Source: Xestospongia muta (Eukaryota > Porifera > Demospongiae > Haplosclerida > Petrosiidae). Taken from it: a stretch of DNA of 64,000 nt. Shown here one piece after another: positions 34,392 through 61,921 of this stretch. Within the stretch, counting starts at the first letter, position 1, and every line of letters starts with the position of its first letter. The DNA is taken from positions 5,461,876-5,525,875 of the forward strand of contig OY848918.1 in assembly GCA_963693285.1 (NCBI GenBank), read 5' to 3'. Both the position numbers and the translations under genes were made by a program. A model generated the notes under the pieces. The model was given only the letters and a program-made list of their open reading frames with translations, was not told the DNA's origin and did not search any database.

Positions 34392-37059
34392 ATGAGAAAG
34401 TAAGAGATTGTTATTTATATATATTAATTATGATGTTAATTTAAAGTACTATATTTGTGACAACATTATTCTTTCTTCATGTTGGTAAGTGTATATTATA
34501 TATATAACTGATTATATTGAGTCAAATCCTGCTATATATGAGGGTTTGACTCACTAGACTAGGTAACTCTTATTTCAGTGTTCTTGTAGTAGCTGCAGCT
34601 GGTATCTTCACTATTGTACCAGAGACACAATATGTCTACCTCAATCATAATGTGACATTTGAATGTGCTACTAACTTAACTGGATATACTCTAACATTTG
34701 CCTATGATGGATCTGTAGATGTAACATTTAAGAAAACTAATCTACCTGATGGTGGTATAAAAGTCACAACAACCTTCATTGTAACTCATACACTCAATGG
34801 TACTAGAGTAAAATGCCATGCTGATGATGATATTAATCAATTTATATCTACTAGCACTTCAAAAGTATACGCTTATGCTCAAGGTTTGTATATGTTAAGA
34901 TTATATATATTAATATCTTAATACAAACCAGGTCCTCCTAAAGCTGTCTCTGATCTCCAAGGATATCAGTTAGATCATTGTTGTATTATCTTCTCCTGGT
35001 CTCCTCCATTCACATTAGGACAGTTAAGTGTGTGGTATCAAGTGACATTAAGTGTAGGAGAAAAAGTGATGTCAACAAAAGTAATCTATATTACTAACTA
35101 CACTTATTGTCCTATTGACCTAACTAATGGAGAATATAGACTTAATATTACTACAATCAATGGAGCAGGGACTGGAATATGGAACAGTAACACTACAATG
35201 TTTAAAACAGGTAATGTGTATCAGATAGTTCAGTTAATAATAATAGATTTATTTATAGTTCGTAAACCATTGAGTAATATAGTAATATTATGGTGATTTG
35301 ACATGTTATAATAACTAATTAATATTACATTCAGATTCAATTACTTCATCCTACTTTGACCTTATACTCTGACCTGTACATAATAGTGTTAAAAGCAAGA
35401 TGACATACAAGTATATTGTTTATTTTCTATTCACAGTTCATACACTAAATGTCTTTTACTACAATCACATGACTTACCAGCAAAATAACAAGTGGACCTA
35501 TTACTTTAATATACCAGTAAGTGATCATGTGATCTGTTGATATATCACATGACATACTCTCTTACAGTCCACTCAACTCTGTACTCAACCTATTATGAAT
35601 TCAACAGTGATGAACTGTAATTTAAAGAACTCTTCTGATTGTTATAACAGTACTAATGTTACTATTATCACTGACTCTAATGGATATAAGACTATAATAT
35701 CAGTAATTGATCTTCCTCCTAAAGAGAAGTTCAATACATTTGTATACTTACAATATAAGAGTGGACAGACATTTCAAACTACTCCAGTTGTTACCAGTAA
35801 GTATATTGTATGTGTTTGTATATATTATTTATAGTTGTTTAAAGGTACTCATGATCTACAAGAAATCACTGTTTGGAATACTTCAGATGATGTCATGTGT
35901 CTTCAATTTAAGTTAGTTCATGGCAGACAAATAACTGAAATATATCTAGATATGAGAAGTGGAGATAAACATCATAATCTGGTTGTGACTAACATGACAC
36001 ATTCCCACTTTGATCAATGTTTCAATGGTATACCTCCTGGTAATTGGACATTATATGCATGTGATGGAGTCCTACCTAATGTCAATGATACGTGTTCTAA
36101 TCCAGCTGTTATATTAACTGATATTAGTATCACTGGCAGAATATTTATAGAACCTTCTATGTCATCTACTACTATAACTAAGGTTTCATATTATACTATT
36201 CAGAAGTCTAGTTCACCAGGTTAGTTAAGAAAATAAACATTTAATATTAAAGAATAGTTTATGATATAATAATGTTATATCCAGTCTCATTTATAGTTAT
36301 TGTGAGTATATCACCTCCTGTTATAAAGACTGAAAACAATAACTGGAATGTGACAGGAATTGCTCTTGGAACAATTAGTGCAATTATTATTGTCATTTTT
36401 ATTGGTAAAAATTACTACTACTAATAATTCTAATGTTAATAATTATTAATCATATATAGTGTCACTTACATTTATCATTGGTGTGTTTATAAAAAGGAAT
36501 TCAAGAAGTAAGATTGTAACATCTACTGATAATAATAATAATGATGCAAATATTATCATACTTTAGAACAAAGTGTGCTGTCTTCAAATGACCTCAATGA
36601 ACCCAGATATTGTACAATACATCAATACAATACTCAGGAAAGTTCTAACTCCTCTGACTCAAATAATTCAGCACAATTAACAGAAATTGTCACAAATAAT
36701 CAAGATAAAAATATAACATCTGATGATTCTTCTCCTATTACTACTGATATGGTATTAATGATTAATGCTATCATCTAATATGTTAATAATGATTAATGTT
36801 ATCATCTAATATTTCAACCTCAGGGACCACAGATAAAGAGTTCTTTTACTAGTAATCTGATACCAGCACCTGTAGAAAATGGTTCTCATAAGGTACATTA
36901 ATGTTTGTATTGTGAGTGTATGTTATCAACTATACTCTATTACAATAGTCTCTGTCACCAGCTGTAGTATATATTGAAGTTGAAGAAGTAAGAAAAAGAC
37001 CAAATCCAGCTGCTGGACTACAATCTGAAGTCCAATATTCTAAAATTACATTCCAATAA
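34392..37059 (+). CDS. R3: Ig/FN3 receptor with tandem ITIM-like tail
   Basis: Twelve exons join in frame: 34392-34399, 34447-34484, 34599-34883, 34932-35210, 35437-35516, 35568-35796, 35845-36219, 36297-36404, 36460-36507, 36567-36751, 36824-36892, 36949-37059, giving 604 residues. Order: signal peptide (1-15), Ig-like (16-110; V-T-F-E-C and V-K-C-H), FN3-like (110-203; C-C-I-I-F-S-W-S-P-P), two membrane-proximal blocks (to 431; C-D-G, S-N-P-A-V-I-L), and TM (about 449-478) followed by K-R-N. The tail is Ser/Asn-rich and has V-V-Y-I-E-V at 36964-36981 and V-Q-Y-S-K-I at 37030-37047, both fitting the ITIM pattern, with the tyrosines 22 residues apart. The paralogue R8 reads CAA where R3 has its TAA stop, two codons after the second motif. 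The Death-domain exon downstream has lost its first two thirds. R3 thus ends as a Death-less form. Confidence 0.75.
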
Positions 37060-37111
37060 TGTAAGATACATATATTAATTAATATTTATAAGATTACTTG
37101 ATTTTTAACAG

Positions 37112-37234
37112 AACCCTCACAAAGACAAACCATTTACTTGGAGTACTCTTCTTAAAGTAATGAGATCTATTAAAGTTGGAGAGAACTCTTTTGCAAATGA
37201 ACTCCAGGAACAACTTTATCAATGTGTCAAATAA
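37112..37234 (+). pseudogene. Remnant of R3 Death-domain exon
   Basis: Reads N-P-H-K-D-K-P-F-T-W and then L-R/K-S-I-K-V-G-E-N-S-F-A-N-E-L-Q-E-Q, the C-terminal third of the Death domain that is intact in R8. The intron AG joins directly at the point where homologues have E-Q-N-P-H, so an internal deletion removed the front of the domain. It lies after the R3 stop. Confidence 0.75.
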
Positions 37235-37259
37235 CTATATAGAATTTTGGATGTTTTTT

Positions 37260-39760
37260 TATTTTTGTAATTTGATTTTTAGTTTTTGTCATACAGTTCT
37301 AATAATTGCAGATTTTATTTTTTATATGTTTGACTACAGAAAATATTTGACATAAAAGTAATTCTTTTAACCATAATATTAACACTATAACCAACCATAT
37401 GGTTTATACATGTTGTATGTAGTGAACTTATTTTGATCAAAAAAGTAAGCACAATACTGTTTTCATTACTAATTAATGCACTACTGTTTATGTAATTACT
37501 ACATTACTACATAATAATCAATTTCATAATACATTAGTAATTAAAAATAACATTGTTTCCATCTTACATATTCAACTTGTATAACAATGTATTAGTTAAA
37601 TCGACCAATCAACTTTTACAGTGATGACAACATAAATATAAGTAGTTATAAAGTTCATTAATGCTGTGTAAATTCTAAGAAGAGGTTGGCATCTTGTGGT
37701 TTAACATTTTGTACATAACTCTCTAAAGAAATATATTATTTTTAACACACAAATACCACTTGAGTAAACATACATGTTATAATATGTGGTTCATTTCTAT
37801 GGTTTCTCACAATATTTGTTTTTTATAAATTAAATGATCAGTGTATATTATACTATTATTAAATACTAATAATTCCATATACAATGCACTTCTATGCCCT
37901 CTATGAGATGACCTCTATATTATTTGTACAAATATAGTCAAGTATGAATGCTAAGTGTAATGTGTAGTTATCAGTGATTGATAAAAAATGTCTATCTGTC
38001 TTACCAAATATAATGGTCATGTGAAGTTAACACAACACTTATGTCAGCAGAGTGTGTGTATATATATGGAGTAGATTGTCAAGATATCCACGAGACAATA
38101 AAGATTTTAAAAATAATGAAATTAGTATGATGATGTTGATAATAGAATGTGGGAAAGGAGAAATGGTCGAATGATGGATGGCTTATGTTTTTACTCGTCC
38201 TAAGTGTACTAATTGTCATGTGACTCATGTACTACTATCACACATGGAAACAAGAAAACTAAACAATAACAACAGAATTACAAGAGAGGTCAGCCACATT
38301 TGTAGCTTGAACATGACATGGGAATATATTCAATAGGCTAATAGATTGACCTCCATACATTATTATTAGATATTGTTATATTGTATTTGTTAACAACTAA
38401 TTAAGAAGTAGTCGCTGATGTGTTGATAATGAGTGGCTTGTTATGGGACATAAAGGACATTTAGTTCAAGAAACCTCAAATAGTAAATCCTACATATATC
38501 TTGAATCACTCTATTAACAATTAGTGAAATGTGATCATATTAATAATGTAAGGTGTTAGCTTTGATGTTGACTATCTAATCTATAGCTATATTAACAATA
38601 TGTCAATACTATATATGGAAGTATTGATACTGAAAATACTGTGTTACACCTGTACCAACCCAAATGTAATCGATAAGCTTTGATATGCCCTGGTTATACA
38701 TACAAGTACCATGAGATGGTTGGTACAAGAATCAGCTACAGGTGTACACTATAAAGTGGTCACTTTAATGACTTCATTGTTTTATACACAAATTTATCTA
38801 GTAAAATTGTCATCTTGTGGCAAAGCTTTGTTTATGAATAATATAACTCAAGTTTGTAAATGTAAATGAAGAATAACAATTTACTGTCATGTGTGATAAC
38901 AATCAATGATATTTTAAGTTTCTAAGTTTAAAGTACAATCTGGTCAGTACAACTAAATAACTATTCACATTGAAGCAATCAAAAAATTGATATACATACG
39001 AACTTTGAAGTTTTGATAGTTATCTCTATAGAGTTGCTTGTTGACTAATCAAGTCTATAAACAGCTTCATGTTATATAAAGAATCAACTGTGATACTATA
39101 ATTATAACTATATAGTACTAATACTGTTTCTAATAATATATGTGCTGCTCGTGGAACTGTTTGGTACTTTGTAATTAAAGGTCAATCTTCAGTAACATCA
39201 TTGAGACTAACTATTGGTAAATCAAAGTAATGCTAATAAAAAAACAAATTTTAGTTGTTGTAATACAATGACCTCCTATAGGTCACCTTAATGGCTTCAT
39301 TATTATATACACAAATTTATATGTCATCTTATGGTAATACTTTATTTATGAATAATATAACTCAAGTTTGTACAATGCGAGATATATCTAATACTAAATG
39401 TGCTCATGGAACTATTTGGTACATTATAATTAAAGGTCAAAGTTCAGTAGCCTTTATTAAGACTGGCTATATATTGGTAAATGAACGTACTACCACTAAA
39501 AGTCAAATTTTATGCTGTTGTTCACAAGGATATTGGTTTGTTTTTGTTGCTCAATAGTTCATGCTAAACTTTCAGTACTATATGTAGACAGTCACGGTGT
39601 AATGTATCCTGTTTAAATATAATCACCTACATACATGTATAAATAAATTATATTAACAAGCTAGGTCAACAATATGTGTATTACATGAGTAAACAACAAC
39701 ATCAAAAATCTAATTTTAACAAATTGCTTAGTCAGCTGGATCAACTTAACAAACAACTAC
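37260..39760. repeat. Duplicated 3' flank of Death-type receptors (copy after R3)
   Basis: Shares long stretches with 57150-58740 (after R6) and 61925-64000 (after R8). It includes the minus-strand S-Y-L-Q-N-V-K-P-Q-D exon (about 37735-37685) and, at 39291-39557, an 88-codon plus-strand frame (M-A-S-L-L-Y-T-Q-I-Y-M, later C-A-H-G-T-I-W-Y, ending F-V-A-Q). A broken copy of that frame precedes it at 38770-39230, and others are at about 58365-58600 and 63460-63830. I do not recognise this product. Confidence 0.5.
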
Positions 39761-39764
39761 TAGT

Positions 39765-39815
39765 CTCGTGTCCAGACTCCCACTTGCATCAAGTGAGTAG
39801 GTGTCTGGACACAAG
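39765..39815. repeat. 51-bp inverted repeat (hairpin)
   Basis: CTCGTGTCCAGAC...GTCTGGACACAAG with ACTTGCATCAAGT at the centre; only a few mismatches. A degraded form lies at about 58683-58732. Confidence 0.75.
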
Positions 39816-40164
39816 ATTAAATAACTACAATTTATAAAGGGGGTGGAGATCAGTTATTAAGTAATAATTACCACAAACAATTAACATTATAGTTTATACA
39901 TGTGACCACCCAATATAAGTCACTGATAGATACAAATATTACAAAACCCAACACACCAACAAGAAAGTACTTATATAATTAGGATTATCAACATGGAGAT
40001 AATGACATCCAAATAAAGGAGGTCCAAAGTAGCCATGTAAAATTAGTATCATTGTCATACACTTTTTTAAATGACTCTGTATCATCAAATGATGTCACTT
40101 ACATAAGAGAAGGAGTAAGTATCTGTTTTATCCATAAATGAAGTGCCAGTCTGTTCATGCATGT

Positions 40165-41500
40165 AATATATGTAATGCCACTTACATTATCTAGTGGTCC
40201 ATTACAAGCAGATATAGTCCAGTTATTACCAGTAGGAATATCACTAATACAATGATTAAAGTATAACATATTATAATGAGTTATATCATAATGTAATATG
40301 GTAGTACTATCCTCAATGTATTATTACTTAAATTATTTAAATCATTTTGTTGTATCAAGTACACACTGACGTAATAGTACACTGTGTTACTATAAGAACT
40401 ATAAACATAATATTGTTATTACAAACTAGTCTTACCTTCTGTCAATATAATAGTGTGTGTGGTTGGTTCTCAATAATAATGTAGTAATTACTATGACCTC
40501 TTGTAATGATGACGTACACATCTCTTTGCTTGTTTCATTCACTATGTTTACTCAATATAACATAACAATTGTATTATGACATGATATACCATTCAATAGT
40601 GTAGTTCATGAATTGTTTATGAGCAGGTACAGTCACTACTGGGAATGTCTATTAAGTAATTCAACAAAATAATTATAATAAAATTAAATATATTATAAGA
40701 AATTTAATATTTAATACATATTTCTTATATAAAATTGTTTATTTTGTATGATTATGTCATTATTACAGGTACAGTCATTAGAGTAATACTATGTTATGTT
40801 ACTAGAAGTACTAAAGAGTTGTCGATACTATCCAATGGTCCATAACAAATGAATTATAGTCACAGACAAAATTAATAAATTATAAGTACATGTATAGTTT
40901 ATGAGTGTGGTCATTGCTGTAATATCAAATATGGAGTACTCATAGTTTACAATTACATCTGTTATGATTGCTTCATACAATAGTAACAACAAAACTGAAT
41001 ATTAACATTATCAAGTAAACATGTTTACTGTTCTATTGCCATAAATTTAGACAAATTACAGTGTTATTGTGTTTGTATGAATCCAATTTCATATCAGCTG
41101 TGATATTTCATTTGATATTGTTACATTTGCTTGCAATGATGATGAAGTGAAGCAGTTATTATATACGTCACAACTTGTAACAGTTACTTCCACTAATGGA
41201 ATAGAACATAGTTGATTGATCTATTAAAATAATATATTATACACTATCTAGTAACTGTTGGGGCTATATTACTAACTGATAATATGAAATAGAAACTCCA
41301 ATAATGTTGATTATCAATCCCAGTCAATATATTTATATACTGATATTATTATTTGGTAGATAATAATATAGTTGACTACAATAAAAACATCAATCATGAA
41401 CATGACTGTGACATTGGTTGTTAACTTCTTCAGTACAGATGGTACATCAATTGTAGTAATATTAAGTGAACATTCTCCATTGTACACTGTAAAAATTGAT
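40165..41500 (-). pseudogene. R4: degenerate copy of the ITAM-type receptor
   Basis: Minus-strand segments match R5 in order: FN3 end (about 41490-41390), exon 4 (about 41310-41250), exon 5 (about 41225-41025; Y-K-H-Y-like and N-V-T-I-S), and pieces of exons 6 and 7 (40870-40170), with deletions, stops and an internal duplication of the exon 6 end. No leader, TM or tail survives. It follows the R3 flank exactly as R7 follows the R6 flank. Confidence 0.65.
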
Positions 41501-41504
41501 AGAT

Positions 41505-42105
41505 GTCTAATATTTATTCAATCTTTCTCTACAGATTATATTCATTCTCTCTGACCTAACTTGATCTAAATAGCTATAGAGAAGTCTTCATAAGGTAAGA
41601 TATAACTATCTTAAAGGAGGTCTGTTAACTTTCATAATGTCATAGATTGTATAGACTACATAACCCTAACCCGGAAAACCTAAACCAAAATTGTCTATCG
41701 AAGTTCAGTAGACTATAGGTATGTTTATTTGTAGGTAGTTATTTTAGGAAGTTAATCTTTTGGGACATCTTATTTTGGGAGTTGGCGTTTAGGGGTAAGT
41801 CATATTTTGGGAAGTGACCATATCACTGAGGGGTGTGGCTATAAATATTCTCCACTTCAATTTTGTTGATTTAATTATTTATTATGTACAGCTGGTATGT
41901 CAATAACTCTCTCTCTCTCTCTCTCTCCAACTTTCACAGACATTTAGATATAACTAACTTCACAACTAGGCCTATCATAATCAGAGATGGTGAGTGGAGA
42001 TGAAGCGAAGGCAAGGGATGATTAAGTAAAGAAAAAGGAAAAGAAAAAGTGAGAGAAAAGTAAGTCAAAATAAAGGAAATCAAAAGACAGCATGTGTTTA
42101 TTATA
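41505..42105. other. Intergenic; repeated TTTTGGGA motifs
   Basis: Four TTTTGGGA-type motifs at about 41758-41812 and a GTATAGACTAC motif at 41649 that also occurs in the 59090 palindrome. A CT repeat lies at about 41909-41928. No gene. Confidence 0.4.
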
Positions 42106-42454
42106 CAGATCAAGATGATCTCTTTGGTAGTCACAAAGACAGTGTGGATGAAGATGAAGACATGCCCCTTGAAAGGGGGAGTGGTTTATTTAGTAGTACT
42201 CAAGTCAGTAGTAGTGGAGGACTATTTGGTAGTGATGAAGAAGAGGAGAGTAGGCGTGACCGGGCAGAGTCTAATGCTTCTTCATCCAAGTCAAGTGATA
42301 GCAGTTCAAAGAAGAAGAAATTACCAGTTGGTGCTGTGCTCCTGTTTGGAGGGGGAGGAGGAGGGTTCTTTGGAGATGATGATGATGAAGTAGAAAATGA
42401 ACTTGAACAGAGTACTCAAAGTGTCTCTAAATCATCCAAGGTACATGAATCTGT

Positions 42455-42562
42455 CTGTCTGTCTGTCTGTCTGTATGTATGTATGTATGAGTGTATGTCT
42501 GTGTCTGTATACATGTATGTATGTATGTATGTATGTATATGTATGTATGTATTTATGTATGT
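42455..42562. repeat. TCTG/TATG microsatellite
   Basis: CTGT repeats grade into TATG repeats just after the first WASHC2 exon. It creates long open frames on both strands that have no meaning. Confidence 0.9.
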
Positions 42563-42606
42563 ATGTCTGAATGAAGTAGGAATATTGTTTATCATGTAAT
42601 TCATAT

Positions 42607-44604: not shown

Positions 44605-44687
44605 TGATGGATGAATGGATGGATGGATGGATGGATGGATCGATGGATGGATGGATGGATGGATGGATGGATGAATGGATGAATGGA
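44605..44687. repeat. GGAT tetranucleotide microsatellite
   Basis: About 18 GGAT units with occasional GAAT or CGAT variants. Confidence 0.9.
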
Positions 44688-45353: not shown

Positions 45354-48016
45354 TTAATGATGTTCTGGTATTATAGGTATTGTAGCATATGCTGGACACT
45401 CTTTTAATCTTATTGGATCAATGTTTTCATATTGTGGACCTGTGACTGCTTCAATAGGAGACATCTCATGATCAACAGTAACTTCATTAACACTAATTGT
45501 TCCTTAATAACATATGATACAATGATATGTTTATATTACAATAATAAAGAATGAACTAACTTTGAGATTTCCTATATTTATGTTGACAGTATATTGTTAT
45601 GATGACAATATTTCCCAATAGAGAGATCATCATGATAAATGTAATAACAGCAAATAATGTAACTATAGACAATAGAATACAAAGATGAACACAACAATAA
45701 CAATGGATAAAAAGAGAAATTGATTACTTACATTCTTCCTACATTTTATAACAAAATATATTTGTGTATGCAAGTTTTCTACATTGTATACAGCAAATAG
45801 ATCATTTCCACAACAAAATCATTTTTGTGTGTACCAACTCACCACTGATATAGAAAGTAGTCATAGCATCATTAATTAAATCATTTGATTGTATAGTCAC
45901 TGAAGTAGTAGTAGTAGTAGTAGTACACTGTGTTACTATAAGAACTATAAATAATAGAAAAAGTACACTTTCTATAAACTAGTCTTACCTTCTGTAGATA
46001 TAATAGTGTGTGTAGTTGGTCTCATTGATATTGGAGTTATGACTCCATCATGTGATGATGGTATGCATATATCACTGCTTATGTTCTTTGTTATTTTTAC
46101 TCCATACAATATAACAGCTGGATTATGACATGATGTACTGTACACATTATCTAGTGGTCCATCACAAGCAGATATAGTCCAGTTATTACCTGTGGGAATA
46201 TCACTAATACAATGATTAAAGTATAATATATTATGACGAGGTACATCATAATGTAATATGGTAGTAGTATCCTCTATATAGAGATGAACTAGACATGTTT
46301 CACTTCCAATAATAAAGTTATATTGAAGACATAAACTGTTATCAGAGATATTGACAATAGACAGATCTAATAGATCATGAGTACCTATATGTTTCAAGAT
46401 AGACAGTAGTTATTATACCATTACATAGAGTACTCACTAGTTGTAAATACATCTGTCATAAAGGTTCTATTACCATAGTCTAAATAAATTATAGTGGTGT
46501 AATGTTTATATGAATCCAGTTTCATATCAGCTGTGATATTTTCATTTGATATTGTTACATTTGCTTGCAATGATGATGCAGTGAAGCAGTTATTATGTAT
46601 ATCACAACTTGTAACAGTTACTTCTACTAATGGAGCAGTACATAGTTGTTTAATCTGTTAAAATAACATATTATACACTATCTAGTAACTGTTGGGACTA
46701 CATTACTAACTGATAATATGAAATGGAAAGTCCAATATTGTTGAGTGTGAATTATAATTAATTTATCAAGGAAGACATCAATTTTATTGGCTAGATCATA
46801 AAACAATTAACATTAATTTTAATTACACATAGTACAAAGAAACATACCAGTTACAAACATGACAGTGATATTAGATGTTATTCCAGTCCCTGCTCCATTG
46901 ATTGTAGTAATATTAACTCTATATTCTCCATTAGTTAGCTCAATAGGACAATAAGTGTAGTTAGTTGTATAGATTACTTCTGATGACATCACTTCTTCTC
47001 CTACACTTAATGTCACTTGATACCACACACTTAACTGTCCTAATGTGAATGGAGGAGACCAGGAGAAGACAACACAACAATGATCTAACTGATATCCTTG
47101 AAGATTAAAGACAGCATCTGGAGGACCTGAATTGAGTGATGAATATTAACAAATTAGTGTAGAATCCACTATTTTTAGTCTTGCAAGCCAGATCTAGCCC
47201 CTAAGAATGAACAACCATGGGTGGGCAAGGATCAGGGAAACTGTAGTAGACTTAATGTATGAAAAACTGAGATTACAGAACATTCAATTATGTCATGTGT
47301 GTTATTGCAACACTTAGCATTAATGAACAACCTCAAAACTTTAAGCTTATATGTTATACTCAAGCTTTTGTTATAAGAGCTAGTAGCTAACATTTCTTTT
47401 CTATGTTTGGTAGTTATTTCACGTTCTGCCTCTACAAACTGTACATACACATTACAACATGTAGAACACCACATCTCAAACTAAATTTTTATAGTCCCAC
47501 TCATCGAACAAGAACTATTATAGAGTTCACCAGATCCTTTTCATCTATTATTCATTCATAGGGGTTAGGTCTGGCTTGGTAGACCAGCAATATTAATATT
47601 CAGACCTTGAGTGTAAGCATATACTTTTGAAGTAGATATAAGTGGATTAGTATCATCATCAGCATGACATCTTACACTAGTACCATTGAGTGAATGAGTT
47701 ACAATGAATGTTGTTGAGACCTTTACACCTCCATCAGGTAGATTAATTTTTTTAACGGTTGCATCTACTGCTCCACCATAAGAAAATGTTAAAGTATATC
47801 CAGTTAAGTTAATAGCACACTCAAATGTTACATTATGATTGAGGTAAACATATTGTGTCTCTGGTACAATAGTAAAGATACCTATAATTGTTTATAATAA
47901 TATATTATAATCATAATTTAAATAAAATAAATATTGTTACATATGTACTTACTAGAAAAACAAGGTAGAATGTGCCAGGCAACCAATTGCAACAAATTAA
48001 AAGAATTTCTTACCAT
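45354..48016 (-). CDS. R5: Ig/FN3 receptor with ITAM-like tail
   Basis: Nine exons join in frame: 48016-47953, 47881-47606, 47126-46848, 46790-46711, 46654-46438, 46384-45989, 45944-45843, 45662-45561, 45502-45354, giving 554 residues. Order: signal peptide (1-21), Ig-like (22-113), FN3-like (113-206; C-C-V-V-F-S-W-S-P-P and W-Y-Q-V-T-L), two membrane-proximal blocks (to 437; C-D-G and H-N-P-A-V-I-L), a Thr-rich stalk (T-T-T-T-T-T-T), a TM helix in exon 8 (residues 471-495) and Y-C-Q-H-K-Y-R-K. The tail has Y-E-N-I and Y-A-T-I with ten residues between (45431-45378), an ITAM-like arrangement with V/I in place of L. There is no Death domain. Ectodomain sequence is close to R3 and R6, so ligands may overlap (inference). 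It is the best-preserved member of its tail class. Confidence 0.8.
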
Positions 48017-50972: not shown

Positions 50973-53900
50973 ATGAAGCAAGGTTTAGGAGTCTTTTCTA
51001 GCGCCTTTAGTTGCTTTTTTGGACTATTGTTCCCTTTTCTGATCAGGTCTTGTCCTGCAGGTAAGTGATTCAGTTAATTACACATAAATAATTTTGATTT
51101 TAGTTTTAGTTAAAAAGAATGTGTAAGTCAGCCATTTTATGAGCTTGACTATAGCTGGCTCGTAATATAGATATTAGACTATAGCTTTGTTCATAAGGTT
51201 ATCTAGCAGGCTGTGTTGATATTGTTTTGGATGTGTGTATGCATAGATTAATAAGATAAACTATGAATCATTGAAGGATCTGGCCCAAGATATCAAAATT
51301 AAGATATCTTTAAGATTTACTTATTTCCAAGCCTAGCCTAGTTTTAGACTGAGATAGTGTACAAGATTTCTGCTTGTTTAGGACCCCTCAGTCATTATCC
51401 ATGTGTCACATTGACAAGTACTACCCCCAGTTTGGTACCTGTTTGCCTACTTGCATTTGCCTACTAGATGTTCAAGTATCTTTTCACCTACTTACTAAAA
51501 TACCTGATTTTACAATTACTATGAGAAGCCCATAGCCTCGCAAAGAAGGAAGGAGCATGCAACTCCCACTTGAAAGCTATTACAATATTAGACGACCCAC
51601 ATTAATCAGCTCATGGCCATATTTCGAATCTTAATAATTATGAAACACTATAAATATAATTAAACATTTCTTGAAGATCATGGTGTTTTACTTGCTATAT
51701 CATGTAGTTGTATACACTTTCCTCCTTTGTGAGTCTATAGGATCTTATCATTACTGATAGTTAAAAAATTTTTAAGATTTAGCAAGTAATGAAAAATAAA
51801 GACCTATTAATGAGTACTTGTATAATACAAGGTATTGTGTCTTATATTCTAGAAATGTAATTCTCTAGTGAAATGATGTTTCCAAGAGAATGAGTCTTTA
51901 ACTCAGTTATTTTGTGTTCCCTGTTGATTGCTCTCAATATTCTCCTAGATTCATGTACCCCAATGCCAACTCTTATAGGTCCACTTTTGTTACATTATGT
52001 TCATTTTGAATTGCTTCAACAAATTGATACAATTTTGGATGTGCTTTTGTAACCATGTGTTTAAATCAGCTATACCTGCAACATTTAAGGCTTAACCCTT
52101 ACAGGACCATTGTCACAAATTTGTGACACACGTGTACTTTAATTGAGACAGCTGTCACAAATTTGTGACATTACACTACAAGACTGTTTTTAGACTAACC
52201 TTTGCTTCTTTATCAAAGACAAGGTCCTCTTTTGTTTATATAGTTATTTATGGTCCCGCCCAACATGTAACGAATAATAATAAGCATGCAATGAATAATA
52301 TAAAAACCAGCTGTACTAACATTTTGCAAATTCACTATCAGTGTGCAGAAGTTATTATCAATGACAAGGTTTAGAGCAGAAGAAGTAATAAATATATTAG
52401 GAAAGGATTTTAGTGATGATAAATTTGATGATAGTGAATTTGCTGATAGTGATAGTGTCATCAAAGGCAGCTAAAACATCATGGCAGCAAGCAAGCGCTC
52501 ATGTTCTTGTGAAAAATTGCTGTCTCCAGGAAACAAATAATGCAATTACATGTGGGCGGAATACATTGATATTAATATTATTTATGATCTCGTAAGGGTT
52601 AATCAAATGAATATACCAGACTATCTTTCACCATGAGGAATGGTCTGATATTCTAGGGATGAGTCTAAAAAGTTTTACATTTCTAGTGTATGTAATCTTT
52701 TGATAGCTTACATTTATTGTTTGTGGACCTTGTTTTATTTAACAGAAAAAGGTCTAGTTCAGTAAACTTTTTCTTATTATTTTGACATCTCACAATTCAT
52801 CATTTGATCCATAGCATTATTTTGAAATATTAACACATACCAACTATACAAATCCACTCTTCTTCATTGCAGTATGTCTTTTAACTTAAGATGCAATGAA
52901 AATCTTATCTGTTCAATAATTAATAATGTTTGGAATATCTTTACTGTATACTATAAATGACAGAAGTTAAGTTTTTTTGACAAATTTGAAAAGAGATTAT
53001 AGTTGTCACCCGAAGATCCTTTTAAAGGAATTGTGTTGTAGCAAAAGGCAATAAAAGAATAGGAATAAGACCTGGTGAATTAGTAGAAGCTGTAATGTGT
53101 CAACAGTATGTAAAAGAAAACCCTTTCTTCCTTAGAGTAATTGATATTGTGGTTTCCATTGAAATTACTTAATTAAAATCAAATCCTTGTACCCTGTTGT
53201 CATCTTATGTCAGAAACTAGAGATGTTATTGTAATCTTTTTTGTGTAGTTCTGGTAATCTAATTATAAGTTATAATATGAAATTAAATAGATTGATTTGA
53301 CTGGCATAGCTATGACCACTAAAAGTCTCATTATTTACTTCAGAATATATTAAGGCACTTGATACAATTTATTGTTTTCTTTTTATAGCTGACAGTAACG
53401 TCACTATTGAACCAGGGACACAATATGTCTACCTCAATCATAATGTGACATTTGAGTGTGCTACCAACTTAAGTGGATATACTCTAACATTTTCCTATGA
53501 TGGATCTGTAGATGTAACATTGAAGCAAACTAATCTACCTGATGGTGGTAGAAAGATCACAACAACCTTCATTGTAACAAGTGATAACAATGGTACTACT
53601 GTGAGATGTCATGCTGATAATGATGATACAAATCAACATATATACTCTTCAAAAGTATTTGCTTATGCTCAAGGTCAGTATATATTTGGATGTATATTAA
53701 TATCTTAATACAAACCAGGCCTTCCTGGAGTTGTCTCTGATCTCCAAGTATATCAGTTAGATCCTTGTTGTATTGTCTTCTCCTGGTCTCCTCCATTCAC
53801 ATTAGGACAGTTAAGTGTGTGGTATCAAGTGATATTAAGTGTAGGAGAAGACGTGATGTCATCAGAAGTAATATCAACTTCTAACTACATTTATTTTCCT

Positions 53901-56732
53901 ATTGACCTAACTAATGGAGAATATAGAGTTAATATTACTACAATCAATGGAGCAGGAACTGGAATATTGAACAGTAACACAACAATGTTTAAAACAAGTA
54001 AATAATTTATCATAAATTTTCTTAATTCTAAAATTTGAGTTTTCATAGTAAGCTAATTACGTTATTAATATCTGAACTATATAGTATGGACAAAGTAATA
54101 ATTTTTTTAAAATGCTATGATCTAAAATCACTATGAATAAGTGATACAATAATAAATATGACTAAACTAATGTACTTATAGAATGCATAGCATTTGGTAT
54201 AGTAATACTATTGTGTTACATTGTATACTTCATTGATTCACTAATTGATAAATTATGTTTTCTTTTCACAGATCAGACAGTCAGCGGCAACTATAATAAT
54301 CACATGACTTATCGTCAAAATGACGACTGGACCTATCACTTTGAAATAGCACCAGTAAGTGATCACATGATCTGTTGATATGTCACATGACTTATTTTCT
54401 TACAGTCCACTCAACTCTGTACTCAACCTATTGTGAATACAACAGTGATGAGTTGTAATTTAAAGAACTCTTCTGATTGTTATAACAGTACTAATGTTAC
54501 TATTATCACTGACTCTAATGGATATAAGACTATAATATCAGTAATTGATCTTCCTCCTAAAGAGAAGTTCAATACATTTGTATACTTACAATATAAGAGT
54601 GGACAGATATTTCAAACTACTCCAGTAGTTACCAGTAAGTATATTGTATGTGTTACATATGTCGTTACTATCTTTGATAACAGGTAGTCATGATCTACAA
54701 CAGTTAATTAGAACTAATACATCAAATGATATATTGTGTCTTCAGTTTATCTTTGTTAATGGAAGTACAATAAATGAAGTACATCTTTACTTGAAGAGTA
54801 GTAACCAGAGCTATCTAATTGGCAATGTCTCCATTAACAATCAACTTACCTTTACCAAATGTTTCAGTGACATACCTGCTAATAATTGGACATTATATGT
54901 ATGTGATGGAGCATTACCTCAAGGCAGCAAGACATGTTCTAATCCAGCTGTTATATTACGTGATATTAGTATCACTGGAAATATTTCTAACTCATCTTCA
55001 GTTAGTAGTAGTGTAATGCCTACTAGATCAATAGGTAAGCTAAGAGTAATAATTATAAAATATAACATAATGTTAATTTTGTATTCTTGGTTGACCTATA
55101 GTCCCTTATTTATAGATATCACAAGTACTACTCCCCCTACAACTACTGAACCTGATAATACAGGAATAATAGTAGGATCTGTTGTAATTGTGATAATTGT
55201 TACTGGTGTTGGTATTGGTAAGTATTATGACTATTATTAGCATCAATTTACTTAATGACAGTAGTTACGGCATTGTCTGTATATCTTGTGAAAAAGAGAC
55301 ATTCATACAGGAACAGTAAGTTAACATAATGATCTAATAGCTAATATTATAAGATATAAAAGAGCAGTGTCAAAGTGAATAAGATTAAAGTTTAAGTAAA
55401 AAGCTTAGCTATAGTGTCAGTCTGTTCTGCTATTGGTTTAGAGATCAATGAAAACTATAGTGTCAGTTTTTAGTCCAATTAAAGCTCTTCAAGTAGTAAT
55501 GAATGAGCTCAACAGCTAGTGGTTTTCTGCAACAACTTTATTTACACCATAATAATGTAAACATTACTTCAGATTAAAATATTCTTTTCCTATTACTAAA
55601 CAGGGGGCACAAGAGTACCTACTCAACAAAGCCCTAATTCCATTGACTCTAAGTCTTTAGTGTTAGTTTGTCAAGATAAAAATGGACAAACAACATTTAA
55701 TAAGGTACTAGACAACACGTTAATGATATGGTATTTACATCTGTGGTAACACAGGAGAATTCTACAGATAATTATAAAACACCAACACCAGTACAAGATG
55801 ATACACATGAGGTATACTTATGTTCATACTATAATTATGCCAATCTTTGGACAACACAGGAGAACCCTAATGACATACCAATAACAGTACGAGACAACAA
55901 TCCTCAAGTAAGTTATATTTATATAATAATTATTATGATGTTATTATATATTATTAAGTTACAGTCTCCGTCATCATCGTTACCACTTTATGGTGATGTC
56001 TTGAGTAGACCTAAAACACCTCCTTCAGTACAATATGATGTCACCAATTCTACAACTATCTTCCAATCCAGTAAGATCTTAAATTATAAACTATATCCTA
56101 ATCTATTAGTAAATGGTAAAGCTATAGGTACATGTTCCTTTGAGAGAGAATCCACAGAGAATGGAAATATTTCAAAACCATTGCCTTGCTTTGGTACTTT
56201 CATAAACCTTCAGTTAACTTTTTCATGTAATAACTATGGACAAATACTATCAGGTGATTCTCTTCCAAGTAACAAAGATGAGGTACAACATGTTATTGTG
56301 TGACTTTATTGAAATATTTCTTTATAATAGTCTCCATCATCAATACTACTTTATGTTGATATTAAAGAAGTAAGCAACAGACCTAAAGCACCTCCTAATG
56401 TACAAACTGATGTCATATATTCTGAACTTACATTCCAATCCAGTAAGATTATTATAATTTAACTGTGTGTATTATTGTATTTCCTTTTAGCAAACAATAA
56501 AACCAACAAATTTCCTAGTCAGAAAGAACTTAAGAAGTTGGTCACATCAAAAGTGACACATAAATGGTTTCCAGTTGACATTAGACTTGGTATGAGTGGA
56601 GAACAACTTGAAGAAATACGAGAAAATTCCATTGATATTCCTGACCATTGCCTTGGTAACTTGTTCTATGAATGGGAACAGATCCCTCACAAAGACAAAC
56701 CATTTACTTGGGAGTTGGGACACACTCCTTAA
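50973..56732 (+). CDS. R6: Ig/FN3 receptor with ITIM-like tail and Death domain
   Basis: Fifteen exons join in frame: 50973-51060, 53389-53673, 53719-53997, 54272-54354, 54406-54634, 54684-55034, 55116-55217, 55262-55315, 55604-55704, 55755-55811, 55860-55907, 55965-56070, 56122-56282, 56331-56442, 56491-56732, giving 765 residues. Signal peptide 1-29; Ig-like 30-124; FN3-like 124-217 (S-W-S-P-P); membrane-proximal blocks to 438; TM about 457-482 followed by K-K-R-H. The tail has L-L-Y-V-D-I (56346-56363) and V-I-Y-S-E-L (56412-56429), tyrosines 22 residues apart as in R3. The Death domain starts at about residue 690 (K-E-L-K-K-L-V and W-F-P-V-D-I-R-L-G). It is cut short: after T-W an extra G-A-G-T-T-G-G-G-type insertion shifts the frame to a TAA, losing the last helix. 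Exon 13 is the least certain. Intron 1 (2.3 kb) is far larger than all others and holds a piggyBac-type element. Confidence 0.7.
52096..52598 (+). mobile_element. piggyBac-type non-autonomous element
   Basis: Ends CCCTTAC at 52096 and GTAAGGG at 52592-52598 are inverted and flanked on both sides by TTAA (52092-52095 and 52599-52602), the piggyBac target duplication. Two GTCACAAATTTGTGAC palindromes are subterminal on the left. Inside, at about 52362-52472, an acidic frame (M-T-R-F-R-A-E-E-V-I-N-I-L and D-S-E-F-A-D-S-D) resembles the N-terminus of piggyBac-family transposases, but the catalytic DDD region is missing. It sits in R6 intron 1. Confidence 0.85.
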
Positions 56733-57045
56733 AGTACTAAGACTGTTAAAGTCGGAGAGGAATCTCTTGCAAAAAATCTGGAAAGATAATTTGTATTGTT
56801 TGATATGAAAATTTGTATTTTGTCATATTTTAAGTGTGAATCATTGTTGTATTGTCAATTCTTTGTCATTTGTAACCCCTTATTCATTTTGTTTTAATAA
56901 TCATTATTATTGTTTTACTATATAAAACTGAATATTCTTTGAAGAGGTGTGGTCACGAGCTGTGGGAGTGTTTTTGTTGAGTCTGTAGTCTGTATTCGTG
57001 AGATTCATGTGAAGAGCAATTACTAACCTCTTTGCTTGGGGCCAC

Positions 57046-57133
57046 TCTCCTTAAAGTACTGAGATCTGTTAAAGCTGGAGAGAAATCTTTTGCAAACGAA
57101 CTACAGGAACAACTTTATCAATGTGTCATATAA
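57046..57133 (+). pseudogene. Orphan last part of a Death domain
   Basis: Reads A-T-L-L-K-V-L-R-S-V-K-A-G-E-K-S-F-A-N-E-L-Q-E-Q and ends with a stop at 57131-57133, the exact part missing from R6, about 310 bp downstream of the R6 stop. I found no convincing splice route joining it to R6, so it is taken as a duplicated remnant. Confidence 0.65.
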
Positions 57134-57149
57134 CTGTGTATGATTTTGG

Positions 57150-58740
57150 ATATCTTTTCATTTCTGTAATTTGCTTTTTAGTTTTATAATTTGATTCTTT
57201 TAATTGTAGAGTTCATCATTTTATTTTACATGTTTGATATCTTGATTTAAAAGTAAATCTTGATCACCATGACAACATAAATATTAATAGTTATAAAGTT
57301 CATGTAAGTTGTGTCAATTCTAAGAAAAGGTTGGCATCTTGTGGTTTAACATTTTGTAGATAATTCTGTAAAGAAATATATCATTTTAACACACAAATAC
57401 TGTTTGAGTAAACATACATGTTATAATATGTGGTTCATCTCTATAGTTTCTCACAATATTTTTTTAATTAATTAAATGATTAGTGTATATTATAATTATT
57501 AAATACTAATATTTCCATATACAATGTACTTCTATGCCCTCTATAAGATGACCTCTATAATATTTTGTACAAATATAATAAAGCCCTTTTGTTATCAATG
57601 CTAAGTGTAATGTGTAGTTATCAGTGCTTGATAAAATATTGTCTGGCTGTCTTACCAAATTTAATGGTTAGCAGAGTGTATATATATATATGGAGTAGAT
57701 TGTCATGATATCTGTGGTGGATGGATTATGTTTTTACTAATAAATTCAACTGTTGACATAGCATTTTATACTATTTCTGTTCTCTCTGCCAATTCTCCTT
57801 GTCCTAAGAGTAAATATTTAACTAATTGTCATGTGACTCATGTACTACTATCACACAAGGAAGCAAGAAAACTAAACAACAATAGAATTACAAGAGAGAT
57901 CAGCCACATTTGTAGCTTAAAATGACATGGGAATATATCCAATAGGCTAATAGATTGACCTCCATATATTTTCATTCGATATTGTTATATTGTATTTGTT
58001 AATAAATAATAAAGGAGTAATTACCGATGTGTGTGAAGTGTATCTTGCTTGATATATACAGCTGTTAGTTCAACAGATCACAGCTGTCAATTTGTAAATA
58101 TGTCCAAATCACTCTATAATAAAAAAATAATTAGTAAAAGTATATATCCCTAATACAAAGGATGATCTTTGATGATATAATCTGGCTATATCAATAACAT
58201 ATCTACCCTCAAAGCCAGCATAGTTACTACAGGAAGGGTCATAGGTTTGCATGAGTAAACACTGTGGTACACATGAGTGTAACTGCAATATAATTGGTAT
58301 TTCAACATAAACCACAAATAGCAGGTGATGGCTAGTACGAAGACCTCCTATAAGTCACCTTAATGGCTTCATTGTTATATACACAAATTTATATGTCATC
58401 TTATGGTAATACTTTATTTATGGATAATATATTGTTTGTAAAATGTGAGATAAAACTAATACTACATCTGCTCATAGAATTATTTGGTACTCTATAATTA
58501 AAGATCAAAGTTCAGTAACCTTTATTAAGACTAGCTACATAATGATAAATGAAAGTACTGCTAGTAAAAAAATCAGATATTGTGCTTGGTCAACAATATG
58601 TATATAATATGGGTAAACAACAACAGCGTCAAAATTCAATTTTAACAAAATTGCTTATAAAGCTATAAGAGATCAATTTGACAAAAACTACTCATGCCCA
58701 GACATCCACTTACATTGAGTAGGTGTTAGGCACAAGAGTA
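57150..58740. repeat. Duplicated 3' flank (copy after R6)
   Basis: Diverged copy of 37260-39760, with internal deletions. The minus-strand S-Y-L-Q-N-V-K-P-Q-D-type exon is at about 57375-57325, and a broken form of the 39291-39557 frame at about 58365-58600. Open stretches at 57728-57925 (+) and 58315-58109 (-) have no recognisable domain. Confidence 0.5.
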
Positions 58741-58764
58741 AATAACTAAAATTTATATTCTTGG

Positions 58765-58950
58765 ATATTTTGACCACTCTGAGGGTTTTATGATCATATA
58801 AATGTAGACAGACATGTCATGTTCTCTACTTACCTGTATTAACATCACAGAGAAAACCTAACACATGATGTTCTAGTGATAGATCATGGAAGTCATCAGG
58901 TAAAGCAAAAGAGACGTGTCCTTTCTTGTACTCCTTGTTAACTTATCTTC
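58765..58950 (-). pseudogene. PhyH exon 2/3 relic
   Basis: Minus-strand sequence matches PhyH exon 2 (G-H-V-S and L-E-H-H near 58915-58860) and the start of exon 3, with frame damage and loss of the rest. Confidence 0.65.
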
Positions 58951-59089
58951 TACTTTCTAGAGACGTAAGTTTAAATTAAAAGAAGTTTGCTGCTGGTCAG
59001 CAACAGGGCTCTCCTATAATTTGTAACCTCCTTCAACCATACCCTTCTCAGTTTATTTGAGGTGTGGCTACTTCAAGCAAAACATAAGG

Positions 59090-59137
59090 ATAGATAGTAT
59101 AGACTACGTAACCGGTTACGTAGTCTATACTATCTAT
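59090..59137. repeat. Perfect 48-bp palindrome
   Basis: ATAGATAGTATAGACTACGT then AACC, followed immediately by its exact complement; no loop and no mismatch. It lies between the PhyH relic and the 3' end of R7. A half-like motif (GTATAGACTAC) occurs at 41649. Confidence 0.95.
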
Positions 59138-59220
59138 GACATAAGCAAACCATACATAGATTACTTAACAAGCAATAAACTATATTAATTAATTTGTACT
59201 GATGTTATATCTAACTAATA

Positions 59221-60642
59221 TCAATTATGCTGTGATACTACAGCATATGCTGGACATTGACTTGTTATTGGGTCTGTGACATTTTCATATTGTGAATCTG
59301 TGACATGTTGAATTGGTACCATTTCATAAACTTCAGCAACAGCTTCGCTATCACTACTGGCACCTAATTTAAGTAGAGTATTTACATGAGGTATGATAAA
59401 ACAACTCACTCTGCTTTTTTCTATGTTTATAACAATATAGTGATGCAGCTATAATGTTTGCAAGTAGAGATGTCATCATAATAATCCCAGTAGCAGTAAA
59501 TAAGGTAATTAAGATGTCTGGTATTGGTATATGATAGAGGAGACTCGTGTATCAAGAAATGTGCTTACTACTGAAAGTATCAATGTTGTCAATTGAACTA
59601 GAATTTAGTGGTAGGCCAGTGTTACAATTACACAGTGAAGACGATATATCTAAAAAAGCACTGTAATACTGAAATTAATTCTAAATAATGCAATAACCAT
59701 TACCTTCTATTGATATACTAGGATGTGTATTCTGCATACTTGATGTTGTAACTATGATCTCCTGATGCAATGATGTCTCCCTATTAATATCATCAGTTAT
59801 GGCCTCTGTTATGGAATTCTTGATCTCATTTACTATATTTACTCCATACAATATAACAGCTGGATTATGACATGATGTACTGTACACATTATCTAGTGGT
59901 CCATCACAAGCAGATATAGTCCAGTTATTACCAGTAGGAATATCACTAATACAATGATTAAAGTATAACATATTATGACGAGGTATATCATAATGTAATA
60001 TGGTAGTAGTATCCTCTATATAGAGATGAACTAGACATGTTTCACTTCCAATAATAAAGTTATATTGAAGACACAAACTGTTATCAGAAATATTGACAAT
60101 AAACTGATCTAAAAGATCATGAGTACCTATTGTAAGTAGTTACAATGAGATGATAAATACAAATATTTGACATACTTGTCTTAAATATATCTGATAGAAA
60201 CACTTGACCGCTGTTATATACTACATACAGTAGTGTAGTGTAGTATTTGTATGGATCAAGTCTCATTGTAGCTATTACAGTAATATTGGATAAAGTGTTA
60301 TCAATTGTCACATTATGTTGTGATAATGAAGCATTGAAACAGACATTTTGTGAGTCACAGCTCATTGTCACTACTTCTTTCAATGATAAACTACATAATT
60401 GTTCCAACTACAAACAAATACAATATTGTCACTATTGTATGGATAAACATACTAATAATATAATTTGATACTTCCAATATTGATGAATACGGATAGTGAC
60501 TGGAAACTTGTAGATGATGTCAATTTTATTATTTGCTAAAAGAAATTAACTTAAACATGGTTGAATAATTACATTTATTACCTATCATATATAATGTAGT
60601 ATTACTGTTCCATATTCCAGTCCCTGCTCCATTGATTGTAGT
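59221..60642 (-). CDS. R7: 5'-truncated receptor with ITAM-like tail
   Basis: Seven minus-strand exons join in frame: 60642-60582 (only the last part of the FN3 domain, I-N-G-A-G-T-G-I-W), 60535-60453, 60407-60176, 60126-59704, 59649-59569, 59517-59410, 59363-59221. The membrane-proximal blocks (H-Y-D-I-P-R-H-N and C-D-G-P-L-D-N-V) are nearly identical to R5. The TM exon carries A-T-G-I-I-M-M-T-S-L-L-A-N-I-I-A-A, then H-R-K-K-Q. The tail has S-Q-Y-E-N-V, which also fits the ITIM pattern, and Y-A-V-V after ten residues (59289-59236), plus a Y-E-M-V further upstream. All remaining frames are open, but signal peptide, Ig and most of FN3 are missing because sequence switches to R8 on the other strand at about 60645. 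Without an alternative 5' exon it cannot be a surface receptor. Confidence 0.65.
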
Positions 60643-60651
60643 AATATTGAT

Positions 60652-61921
60652 TGTAGTAGTCTAGTTCACCAGGTAAGTTAATAAAATAAACACTTAATAT
60701 TAAAAAACGTTTATAATATAATATGTTATATCTAGTTTCATTTATAGTTATTGTGAATATATCAACTCCTGTTATAGAGACTGATATCAATAAAGTGATG
60801 GTAATAAGAATTGCTGTTGGAACTCTTTTTATTCCAATTACTATTGTCATTTTTACTGGTAAAAATTACTACTAATAATAATAATGTTAATGTTAATAAT
60901 TATTAATCATTTATAGTATTACTTATCATTGTTGTGTTTATAAAAAAAGAAATCAAGAAGTAAGTTTGTAATATTTACTGATAATATTATAATTATGCAA
61001 ACATTTTCATACTTTAGAACAAGATATGTTGTCTCTAAATGATTCCAATGAATTAAGATATTGTACAATACATCAATACAATACTCAGGAAAGTTCTAAC
61101 TCCTCTGACTCAAATAATTCAGCACAATTAACAGAAATGGTCACAAGCAGTCAAGAAAGAAATTTAATATCTGATGATTCTTTTCCAATTACTACTGATA
61201 TGGTATATGGTAATAATAAATAATGATTAATGCTATCATCTAATATGTTAATAATGATTAATACTATCATCTAATATGTTAATAATAATTAATGCTATTG
61301 TCTAATATTTTAATCTCAGTCACCACAGATAAAGAGTTCTTTCACTAGTAATCTGACACCAGCACCTGTAGAAAATGGTTCTTATAAGGTACAGTAATGT
61401 TTGTATTGTGACTGTATGTTATCAACTATACTCTATTTCAATAGTCTCTGTCACCAGCTGTAGTATATATTGAAGTTGAAGAACTAGGAAAAAAACCAAA
61501 TCCAGCTGCTGGACTACAATCTGAAGTCCAATATTCTAAAATTACATGCCAACAATGTAAGACATATACAATAATTAATATTTATAAGATTACTTAATTT
61601 TTAGTGAACAATAAAATTTTAAATAAACCACCAAACCAGAAAGAACTTAAAGAATTGGTTACATTGAGAGTAGCTCATAAATGGTTTCCAATTGGTATCG
61701 GACTTGGTATTAGTGGAGAACAACTTGAAGAAATACGAGAAAATTCTAATGATATTCCTGACTGTTGCCTTGGTAACTTGTTCTATGAATGGGAACAGAA
61801 TCCTCACAAAGACAAACCATTTACTTGGGGCACTCTCATTAAAGTACTGAGATCTGTTAAAGTTGGAGAGAAATCTTTTGCAAATGAACTGCAGGAACAA
61901 CTTTATCAATGTGTCAAATAA
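60652..61921 (+). pseudogene. R8: 5'-truncated receptor with intact Death domain
   Basis: Exons homologous to R3 exons 7 (end only, to 60672), 8 (60748-60858), 9 (60917-60959), 10 (61018-61202), 11 (61320-61388), 12 (61445-61556) and the Death exon (61605-61921). It keeps V-V-Y-I-E-V (61460-61477), V-Q-Y-S-K-I (61526-61543) and CAA where R3 has TAA, so splicing into the Death domain is possible. The Death domain is complete: H-K-W-F-P-I-G-I-G-L-G-I, E-Q-L-E-E-I-R-E-N, C-C-L-G-N-L-F-Y-E-W-E-Q, F-T-W-G-T-L-I-K-V-L-R-S, ending Q-C-V-K. The A-run in exon 9 makes the exon one base out of phase relative to R3, and the ectodomain is absent. It is therefore probably dead, but it preserves the ancestral tail. 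Confidence 0.7.

What the first reader, a model, noticed from the sequence alone, without database searches (positions are those of the whole stretch)
34392..61921. Receptor family with shared ectodomains and two opposing tail types
R3, R6 and R8 pair tandem ITIM-like motifs with a Death domain. R5 and R7 have nearly the same membrane-proximal ectodomain but carry a YxxI/V-x10-YxxI/V pair and no Death domain. Similar ectodomains with opposite signalling tails is the logic of paired receptors (KIR, LILR, SIRP) in vertebrates. I know of no description of an ITIM-Death receptor or of such pairing in an early-branching animal; novelty is my inference.
Basis: partly seen in the sequence, partly recalled or inferred. 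Interest (0 to 1): 0.9.

Follow-up and report, generated by a model that had tools for sequence, protein, structure and literature searches.

The report
Sponge receptors with swappable signalling tails
A clustered family of cell-surface receptors in a giant barrel sponge joins nearly the same outer parts to different inner signalling tails, and one tail type couples an off-switch-like tyrosine motif to a cell-death domain, which may show how old immune-style on/off receptor pairs are.

Summary
The exons are real, but the finding is only partly right as written. In the window none of the three 'ITIM-Death' genes is intact: R3 stops after its second ITIM, R6's Death domain is frameshifted, R8 lacks an ectodomain and is frameshifted. 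R5 shares only the outer Ig-FN3 part with R3/R6; the membrane-proximal domains average 35-42% identity. Elsewhere on the chromosome the idea holds better. Six paralogues read openly from Ig through FN3, two further domains, TM and a two-tyrosine exon into a Death domain; the second tyrosine is a canonical ITIM in 11 of 11 copies and the Death domain is under purifying selection (pN/pS 0.30). Three other tail types exist, two of them on ectodomains about as close to the ITIM-Death genes as those are to each other. Four intronless SHP genes and a Syk-family kinase are present. ITIM/ITAM families are known in Hydractinia and Botryllus; my searches showed no ITIM-Death receptor. Opposite signalling is unproven.

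The parts
34392..34484 (+). R3 signal peptide, two exons 34392-34399 and 34447-34484 (MRN|TIFVTTLFFLHV)
34599..34883 (+). R3 Ig-fold exon
   Evidence: AF2 pLDDT 93.6 and Ig fold
34932..35210 (+). R3 FN3 exon
35437..35796 (+). R3 domain 3 (exons D3a 35437-35516 and D3b 35568-35796), family unknown
35845..36219 (+). R3 domain 4, membrane-proximal, family unknown
36297..36507 (+). R3 transmembrane exons (36297-36404, 36460-36507)
36949..37059 (+). R3 two-ITIM exon (VVYIEV, VQYSKI) with an in-frame TAA at 37057
37109..37231 (+). R3 remnant of the Death exon, about the last 41 of 107 residues, behind the stop
40153..41214 (-). R4: fragments of D3b and D4 of the class B type
45357..47882 (-). R5, class B: Ig 47606-47882, FN3 46848-47126, D3a 46711-46790, D3b 46438-46654, D4 45989-46384, stalk 45843-45944, TM 45561-45662, tail 45357-45502 with YENI-x10-YATI
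   Evidence: no stop or frameshift in the model
53388..55315 (+). R6 ectodomain and TM exons (Ig 53388-53673, FN3 53719-53997, D3 54272-54634, D4 54684-55034, TM 55116-55315)
56331..56442 (+). R6 two-ITIM exon (LLYVDI, VIYSEL)
56491..56783 (+). R6 Death exon, joined in frame to the ITIM exon but frameshifted from about 56721
59224..60651 (-). R7, truncated class B: FN3 remnant 60582-60651, D3 60176-60535, D4 59704-60126, stalk 59569-59649, TM 59410-59517, tail 59224-59363 with YENV-x10-YAVV; no Ig exon found
60747..60963 (+). R8 TM exons; no ectodomain exon found upstream on this strand; frameshift at 60958
61445..61556 (+). R8 two-ITIM exon (VVYIEV, VQYSKI), joined in phase 1 to the Death exon
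61605..61921 (+). R8 Death exon, intact

Best explanation
A common ectodomain (Ig, FN3, two more domains) is joined by in-phase exons to one of at least four tails. The main tail of interest, class A, has an exon with two phosphotyrosine-type motifs, the second a canonical ITIM, spliced straight into a Death domain. Shown here: exon anatomy, in-phase reading, six open paralogues, purifying selection on the Death domain, conserved tyrosine motifs in an otherwise fast-changing exon, class A and C tails mixed over the ectodomain trees, and genes for SHP-type phosphatases and a Syk-type kinase in the same genome. Inferred: ligand binding clusters the receptor; a Src-type kinase phosphorylates the tyrosines; an SHP docks and damps local kinase signalling, or holds the Death domain in check, while the clustered Death domain can nucleate an adaptor assembly (CRADD/FADD-like) for cell death or NF-kB-type output. 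Class B, C and D receptors see related ligands but send YENI/YxxI-based signals. The window copies R3, R6 and R8 are decayed members.
For: 41 D4 matches (some partial), all on C2 between 3.73 and 5.59 Mb; nine near-full Death copies at 71-99% identity, all on C2, R6 and R8 among them (150 of 1002 candidates scored); 11 ITIM-exon matches, all on C2, two of them degenerate. Six copies (L041, L042, L043, L045, L046, L047) show no stop or frameshift in the exons aligned from Ig to Death. Death: 9 copies, 36 pairs, pooled pN/pS 0.30; ITIM exon: 11 copies, 55 pairs, 1.12, yet both tyrosines and the -2 valine of motif 2 are invariant (test on 5 columns that I chose, 8 dereplicated copies: p 0.013 by difference, 0.0014 by BLOSUM). 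Death fold. P0034 (YSEI) and P0036 (VTYSEC, so not canonical at +3), ORFs from other assemblies, read the second motif and the Death domain in one unbroken frame. Ectodomains are shared across A, C and D; class A is as scattered on the trees as shuffled labels (6 changes, shuffled mean 6.3; 7, mean 6.8). SHP: SH2-SH2-PTP ORFs, best PDB match PTPN11 2.7e-196. Syk.
Against: No transcript, protein or phosphorylation data were available. All three ITIM-Death genes inside the window are broken. Motif 1 is a canonical ITIM in only 4 of 11 copies (one of the 11 lacks letters at -2). Among the six open class A copies I read a signal peptide only for L045, L046 and L047. The cytoplasmic exons between TM and ITIM exon were aligned only in part in some models (L041, L043). 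YxxI/V also fits AP-2 endocytosis signals. Shuffling the residues of four tails gave as many ITIM matches in 0.26, 1.9, 2.3 and 20% of shuffles. Class B is a separate clade, and all labels together are more clustered than shuffles on both trees (7 changes against 8.5, as low in 13 of 200; 8 against 10.3, 5 of 200), so in this window the A/B pairing is weak. The trees are quick ones with few well-supported branches. Gene conversion could scatter tail classes and bias pN/pS.
Confidence: 0.55

Rival explanations
1. The tyrosine motifs are YxxPhi sorting signals for AP-2, not ITIM or ITAM. Class A is then a Death-domain receptor whose tyrosines drive endocytosis, and the tail classes differ in trafficking rather than in the sign of signalling.
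For: The conserved tyrosines have I, V or L at +3 in A (11 of 11 copies for both motifs), I, V in B and C and D; the -2 residue of motif 1 and of the B and C motifs is often P, Q or D, which does not fit ITIM.
Against: The -2 valine of motif 2 is invariant in 11 of 11 copies, which AP-2 does not require (recalled), in an exon with pN/pS about 1.1. Four intronless SHP genes and a fifth set of SHP-like exons are present.
Confidence: 0.2
2. All tails are activating or adaptor-docking: SHP2-like enzymes act positively, and YENI docks a Grb2-type SH2 (pYxN). The classes give different positive outputs, so there is no activating/inhibitory pairing.
For: The sponge SHP on C5 matches PTPN11 better than PTPN6 (2.7e-196 against 1.4e-174), and PTPN11 is mostly a positive regulator (recalled). 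YEN[IV] is kept in B, R7 and D. No charged residue was seen inside the B, C and D TM segments.
Against: The second motif of class A is of the ITIM type in all 11 copies.
Confidence: 0.17
3. The locus is mostly a birth-and-death graveyard; ITIM-Death genes are not expressed as joined proteins.
For: R3, R4, R6, R7 and R8 are broken or partial; of the fetched loci L050 and L053 are fragments and L052b has a stop.
Against: Six open class A copies and Death pN/pS 0.30.
Confidence: 0.08

Closest known systems
Hydractinia Alr genes and Botryllus fester co-receptors (FcoR)
   Same: Invertebrate candidate allorecognition receptors, in a locus, whose tails carry ITIM, ITAM or hemITAM, or in FcoR a bare Y-x-x-I/L/V core motif; FcoR are an Ig-superfamily multigene family (PMC12065747, abstract and passages; that Alr are Ig-type is recalled)
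   Different: No Death domain is mentioned in the passages read; the review says that candidate allorecognition proteins are not conserved between phyla; homology to the sponge family was not tested
Vertebrate paired receptors (KIR, LILR, SIRP, FcR-like)
   Same: Clustered genes, near-identical ectodomains, different tails, ITIM of the VxYxx(L/I/V) form (motif details recalled)
   Different: Activating members usually have a short tail with a charged TM residue (recalled); none seen here. No Death domain (recalled)
TNF-family death receptors that bind SHP-1 (TRAIL-R)
   Same: One receptor engages both a Death-domain pathway and an SHP phosphatase (PMC10967194, passages)
   Different: SHP-1 binding depends on the death domain itself and that paper says TRAIL-R has no ITIM; here separate ITIM-type motifs precede the Death domain, and the ectodomain is Ig/FN3
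Sponge Ig-TIR receptors and an Ig-CARD gene
   Same: Sponge Ig-type domains joined to a TIR or CARD signalling domain (PMC6208332, passages)
   Different: Different signalling domain; no ITIM is mentioned in that paper (0 occurrences)

Membership tests
Death-domain superfamily | six-helix death fold and profile match | tested here: met
   Pfam Death at E<=0.1 in 32 of 36, CRADD profile hit 3.3e-5, AF2 and Foldseek (the model shows five helices of 4 or more residues); the R8 exon alone scores below Pfam's cut-off
Immunoglobulin superfamily | Ig fold in the ectodomain | tested here: met
   sequence profiles alone were inconclusive
ITIM receptors | (I/V/L/S/T)xYxx(I/V/L) in the tail | tested here: met
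   second motif 11 of 11 copies, first motif 4 of 11
ITIM receptors | phosphorylation and SHP recruitment | not testable with these tools
   SHP genes present
ITAM receptors | YxxI/L-x6-12-YxxI/L kept as a spaced unit | tested here: inconclusive
   x10 in B, x19 in D, a single motif in C
Paired receptors (KIR/LILR/SIRP type) | clustered genes with highly similar ectodomains and different tails | tested here: met
   A, C and D; for in-window A and B only the distal Ig-FN3 part
Paired receptors (KIR/LILR/SIRP type) | activating member with a charged TM residue or an ITAM | tested here: inconclusive
   no charged residue seen inside the B, C and D TM segments read; ITAM only approximate in B
TNF receptor superfamily | cysteine-rich TNFR ectodomain | tested here: inconclusive
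   the ectodomain exons scanned gave no TNFR family; domains 3 and 4 remain unassigned

The most novel reading that the evidence does not exclude
A sponge has a true paired-receptor system in which the ITIM-bearing member is fused to a Death domain, so that one receptor decides in cis between SHP-mediated restraint and death- or NF-kB-type signalling, while sister receptors with the same ectodomain send other tyrosine signals: a self/non-self or microbe sensing module from the sponge branch, with several SHP genes to match.
Probability: 0.35. Interest if true: 0.9.

Novelty: new variant of a known kind. Interest (0 to 1): 0.72.

Why it matters
Allorecognition in sponges is well known but its receptors are not (recalled). 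A clustered Ig-type family with swappable tyrosine tails, beside SHP and Syk genes, would carry the ITIM/ITAM logic seen in cnidarians, tunicates and vertebrates down to sponges. The ITIM-Death fusion would be a new receptor architecture whose two outputs can be tested separately.

Tried and rejected
Rejected: R3 as an ITIM-Death gene (stop and deletion); R8 as a complete receptor; 'membrane-proximal ectodomain nearly the same' between A and B; ITAM as a settled name for the B tail. Led nowhere: profile search of the Ig exon against PDB (settled by folding instead); domain 4 against PDB gave a yeast kinetochore protein at 9e-4, which I take as chance; a single-exon signal-peptide scan gave none for L043 and L045 and nothing convincing for L041, L042 or L046 (L045 and L046 were then read as split peptides); a search for sponge SHP papers showed no sponge SHP paper among the 12 listed of 986. 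Not in print, as far as searched: searches for sponge+ITIM+death domain, ITIM+ITAM+Porifera, Ig/FN3/Death sponge receptors, sponge+ITAM+Syk+SH2, paired receptors in invertebrates, Hydractinia+ITIM and Amphimedon+immunoreceptor tyrosine-based showed no ITIM-Death receptor. Most listings were seen only as titles and abstract starts; passages by term were seen in PMC12065747, PMC11999971, PMC6208332, PMC10967194, PMC9505182, PMC4772301 and PMC12398682. No paper was read whole, and the library lacks most subscription papers. Dropped before counts: two degenerate ITIM-like exons (window 55974-56069 and its L047 counterpart) were left out; R3, L043b and L046 were left out of the column test as near-copies; R6's Death exon was cut before its frame break (73 codons); L043b has only part of its ITIM exon; L052b, L050, L053 and L055 were left out, and L052a and L059 from all or parts of them; L057 and L058 entered the trees without a tail class.
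Full report
Where it is. The window is G000:C2:5461876-5525875 of a 158.03 Mb genome in 28 contigs. The contig lengths seen (35.35, 22.15, 13.57, 10.60, 8.75, 8.28, 5.92, 5.78 Mb) match within about 0.01 Mb the chromosome table of Xestospongia muta odXesMuta1.1, 158.52 Mb (PMC12398682, passages). The species name rests on these lengths, not on a sequence comparison.

The observation. R3 reads from a split signal peptide through Ig, FN3, two more domains and TM to an exon with VVYIEV and VQYSKI, but a TAA at 37057, just before the donor site, closes that exon, and only about the last 41 of 107 Death residues remain behind it. R6 is open down to LLYVDI and VIYSEL and enters the Death exon in frame, then loses the frame at about 56721. 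R8 has intact ITIM and Death exons in phase, but no ectodomain on its strand and one frameshift at 60958; it lies head to head with R7, which lacks Ig and most of FN3. R5 is open from Ig to its tail.

Is it more than chance? The ectodomain exon D4 has 41 matches in the genome, some partial, all on one chromosome within 2 Mb. I fetched 20 loci. Six class A copies (L041, L042, L043, L045, L046, L047) show no stop or frameshift in the exons aligned from Ig to Death; L045 and L046 also show a split signal peptide (I read its tiny first exon by eye) and L047 shares a single-exon one with R6. Across nine Death copies pooled pN/pS is 0.30 (36 pairs, dN/dS of single pairs 0.14 to 0.58); across 11 ITIM exons it is 1.12 (55 pairs). 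So the ITIM exon changes freely as a whole, yet both tyrosines, the valine at -2 of motif 2 and an I, V or L at +3 of both motifs are kept in all 11 copies. Motif 2 is a canonical ITIM in 11 of 11, motif 1 in 4 of 11. A test on five columns that I chose, with eight dereplicated copies, gave p 0.013 (differences) and 0.0014 (BLOSUM). Residue shuffles of four tails are weaker evidence: as many matches in 0.0026, 0.019, 0.023 and 0.20 of shuffles.

Tail classes. A: ITIM exon plus Death. B: QYENI-x10-AYATI (R5, L049; L048 with AYAMI; R7 with V at both +3). C: a short tail with one motif, AYGVI (L044, L051, L060; L052b has a stop in Ig). D: QYEN(I/V)-x19-AYGVI (L054, L059), with a second, apparently alternative end exon; L055 gives the same model as L054, L052a only in part. 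L056 keeps the ITIM exon, with no Death exon found in the 7 kb fetched; L057 and L058 have tails I did not resolve. Mean identities between classes: A-A Ig 73, FN3 84, D3b 89, D4 67%; A-C 78, 85, 89, 67; A-D (one D gene, L054) 68, 84, 88, 74; A-B 68, 80, 35, 42. On quick trees of Ig+FN3 (18 rows) and D3b+D4 (20 rows) class A needs 6 and 7 changes, as with shuffled labels (means 6.3 and 6.8; as low in 274 and 359 of 500), and starred branches force at least 2 and 4; class C needs 3 changes for 3 rows in both; class B is one clade in both; all labels together are more clustered than shuffles (as low in 13 and 5 of 200). Tail swapping between A and C is therefore supported, and for D suggested; recombination or conversion is the likely means (inference).

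Effectors. Four single-exon ORFs carry two SH2 domains and a tyrosine phosphatase domain: one on C5 (560 aa) and a tandem triplet on C3 (558, 566, 522 aa); the C5 one matches PTPN11 structures at 2.7e-196. A fifth set of SH2 and PTP exons lies on C8. A tandem-SH2 kinase on C7 has SYK or ZAP-70 as best match for its two SH2 exons. Eight SH2-kinase ORFs without stops stand in an array on C8.

How it may work. Shown: anatomy, conservation, gene content. Inferred: ligand clustering, phosphorylation by a Src-type kinase, SHP docking at the ITIM, and Death-domain assembly with a CRADD/FADD-type adaptor. Whether SHP restrains the Death output or other receptors is open. TRAIL-R offers a precedent for one receptor serving both an SHP and a death pathway, without an ITIM (PMC10967194, passages).

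Known and new. ITIM/ITAM-type motifs on candidate allorecognition receptors are reported in Hydractinia and Botryllus (PMC12065747, abstract and passages); sponges have Ig-TIR receptors and an Ig-CARD gene (PMC6208332, passages), and Amphimedon has many NLR-type genes with CARD or DEATH domains (PMC9505182, passages). A study of another Xestospongia, X. testudinaria, found DEATH domains enriched in two other sponges rather than in it (PMC4772301, passages), whereas here they are very numerous. The ITIM-Death fusion and a sponge family with tail classes were not found in the searches named under Tried and rejected. I call it a new variant of a known kind.

Decay in the window. P0002, from another ENA assembly, carries a full Death exon with residues like those of R3's remnant (STLLKVMRS), so an intact relative of R3's Death exon exists elsewhere; whether it is an allele or another species is not known.

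Noticed in passing
L062 and L063 (G000:C5:8740700-8742700, G000:C3:11956050-11961900): Four intronless SHP-type genes (SH2-SH2-PTP), three in tandem; the first of the three has an altered signature motif (VQCSNGVGRTG, against VHCSAGIGRTG in the C5 copy).
   Followed up: partly
G000:C8:6531713-6584463: An array of eight open SH2-plus-tyrosine-kinase frames.
   Followed up: no
G000:C2:9.4-9.7 Mb, C11:3.76-3.99 Mb, C12 near 1.0-1.3 Mb, C7: Very large arrays of tyrosine-phosphatase-domain exons, suggesting expanded receptor-type phosphatases.
   Followed up: no
whole genome G000: Death-domain exons are very numerous: 1488 first-look candidates, of which 150 were scored and all 150 matched, many in arrays on C3, C6 and C9.
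   Followed up: no
window 1222-1530 (-), 24337-24735 (+), 25957-26247 (+): Further Death-like exons; the first two align to the R8 Death exon at 30-33% identity; only the second has a (weak) Pfam Death match, 0.018; the third is by eye.
   Followed up: partly
window 6483-8064 (+): Another receptor-like set of exons with an FN3 match (2.8e-4), about 32% identical to the R3 FN3 exon.
   Followed up: no
window 9827-11265 (+): QRICH1-domain and tyrosine-recombinase (Phage_integrase) ORFs, like a Crypton-type element (the element name is recalled).
   Followed up: partly
window 29069-29560: A tandem minisatellite, open in several frames (repeat unit of about 12 bases judged by eye).
   Followed up: no
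window 55974-56069 (+) and G000:C2:5542655-5542750: R6 and L047 each carry a second, degenerate ITIM-like exon just upstream of the good one; possibly an alternative exon.
   Followed up: no
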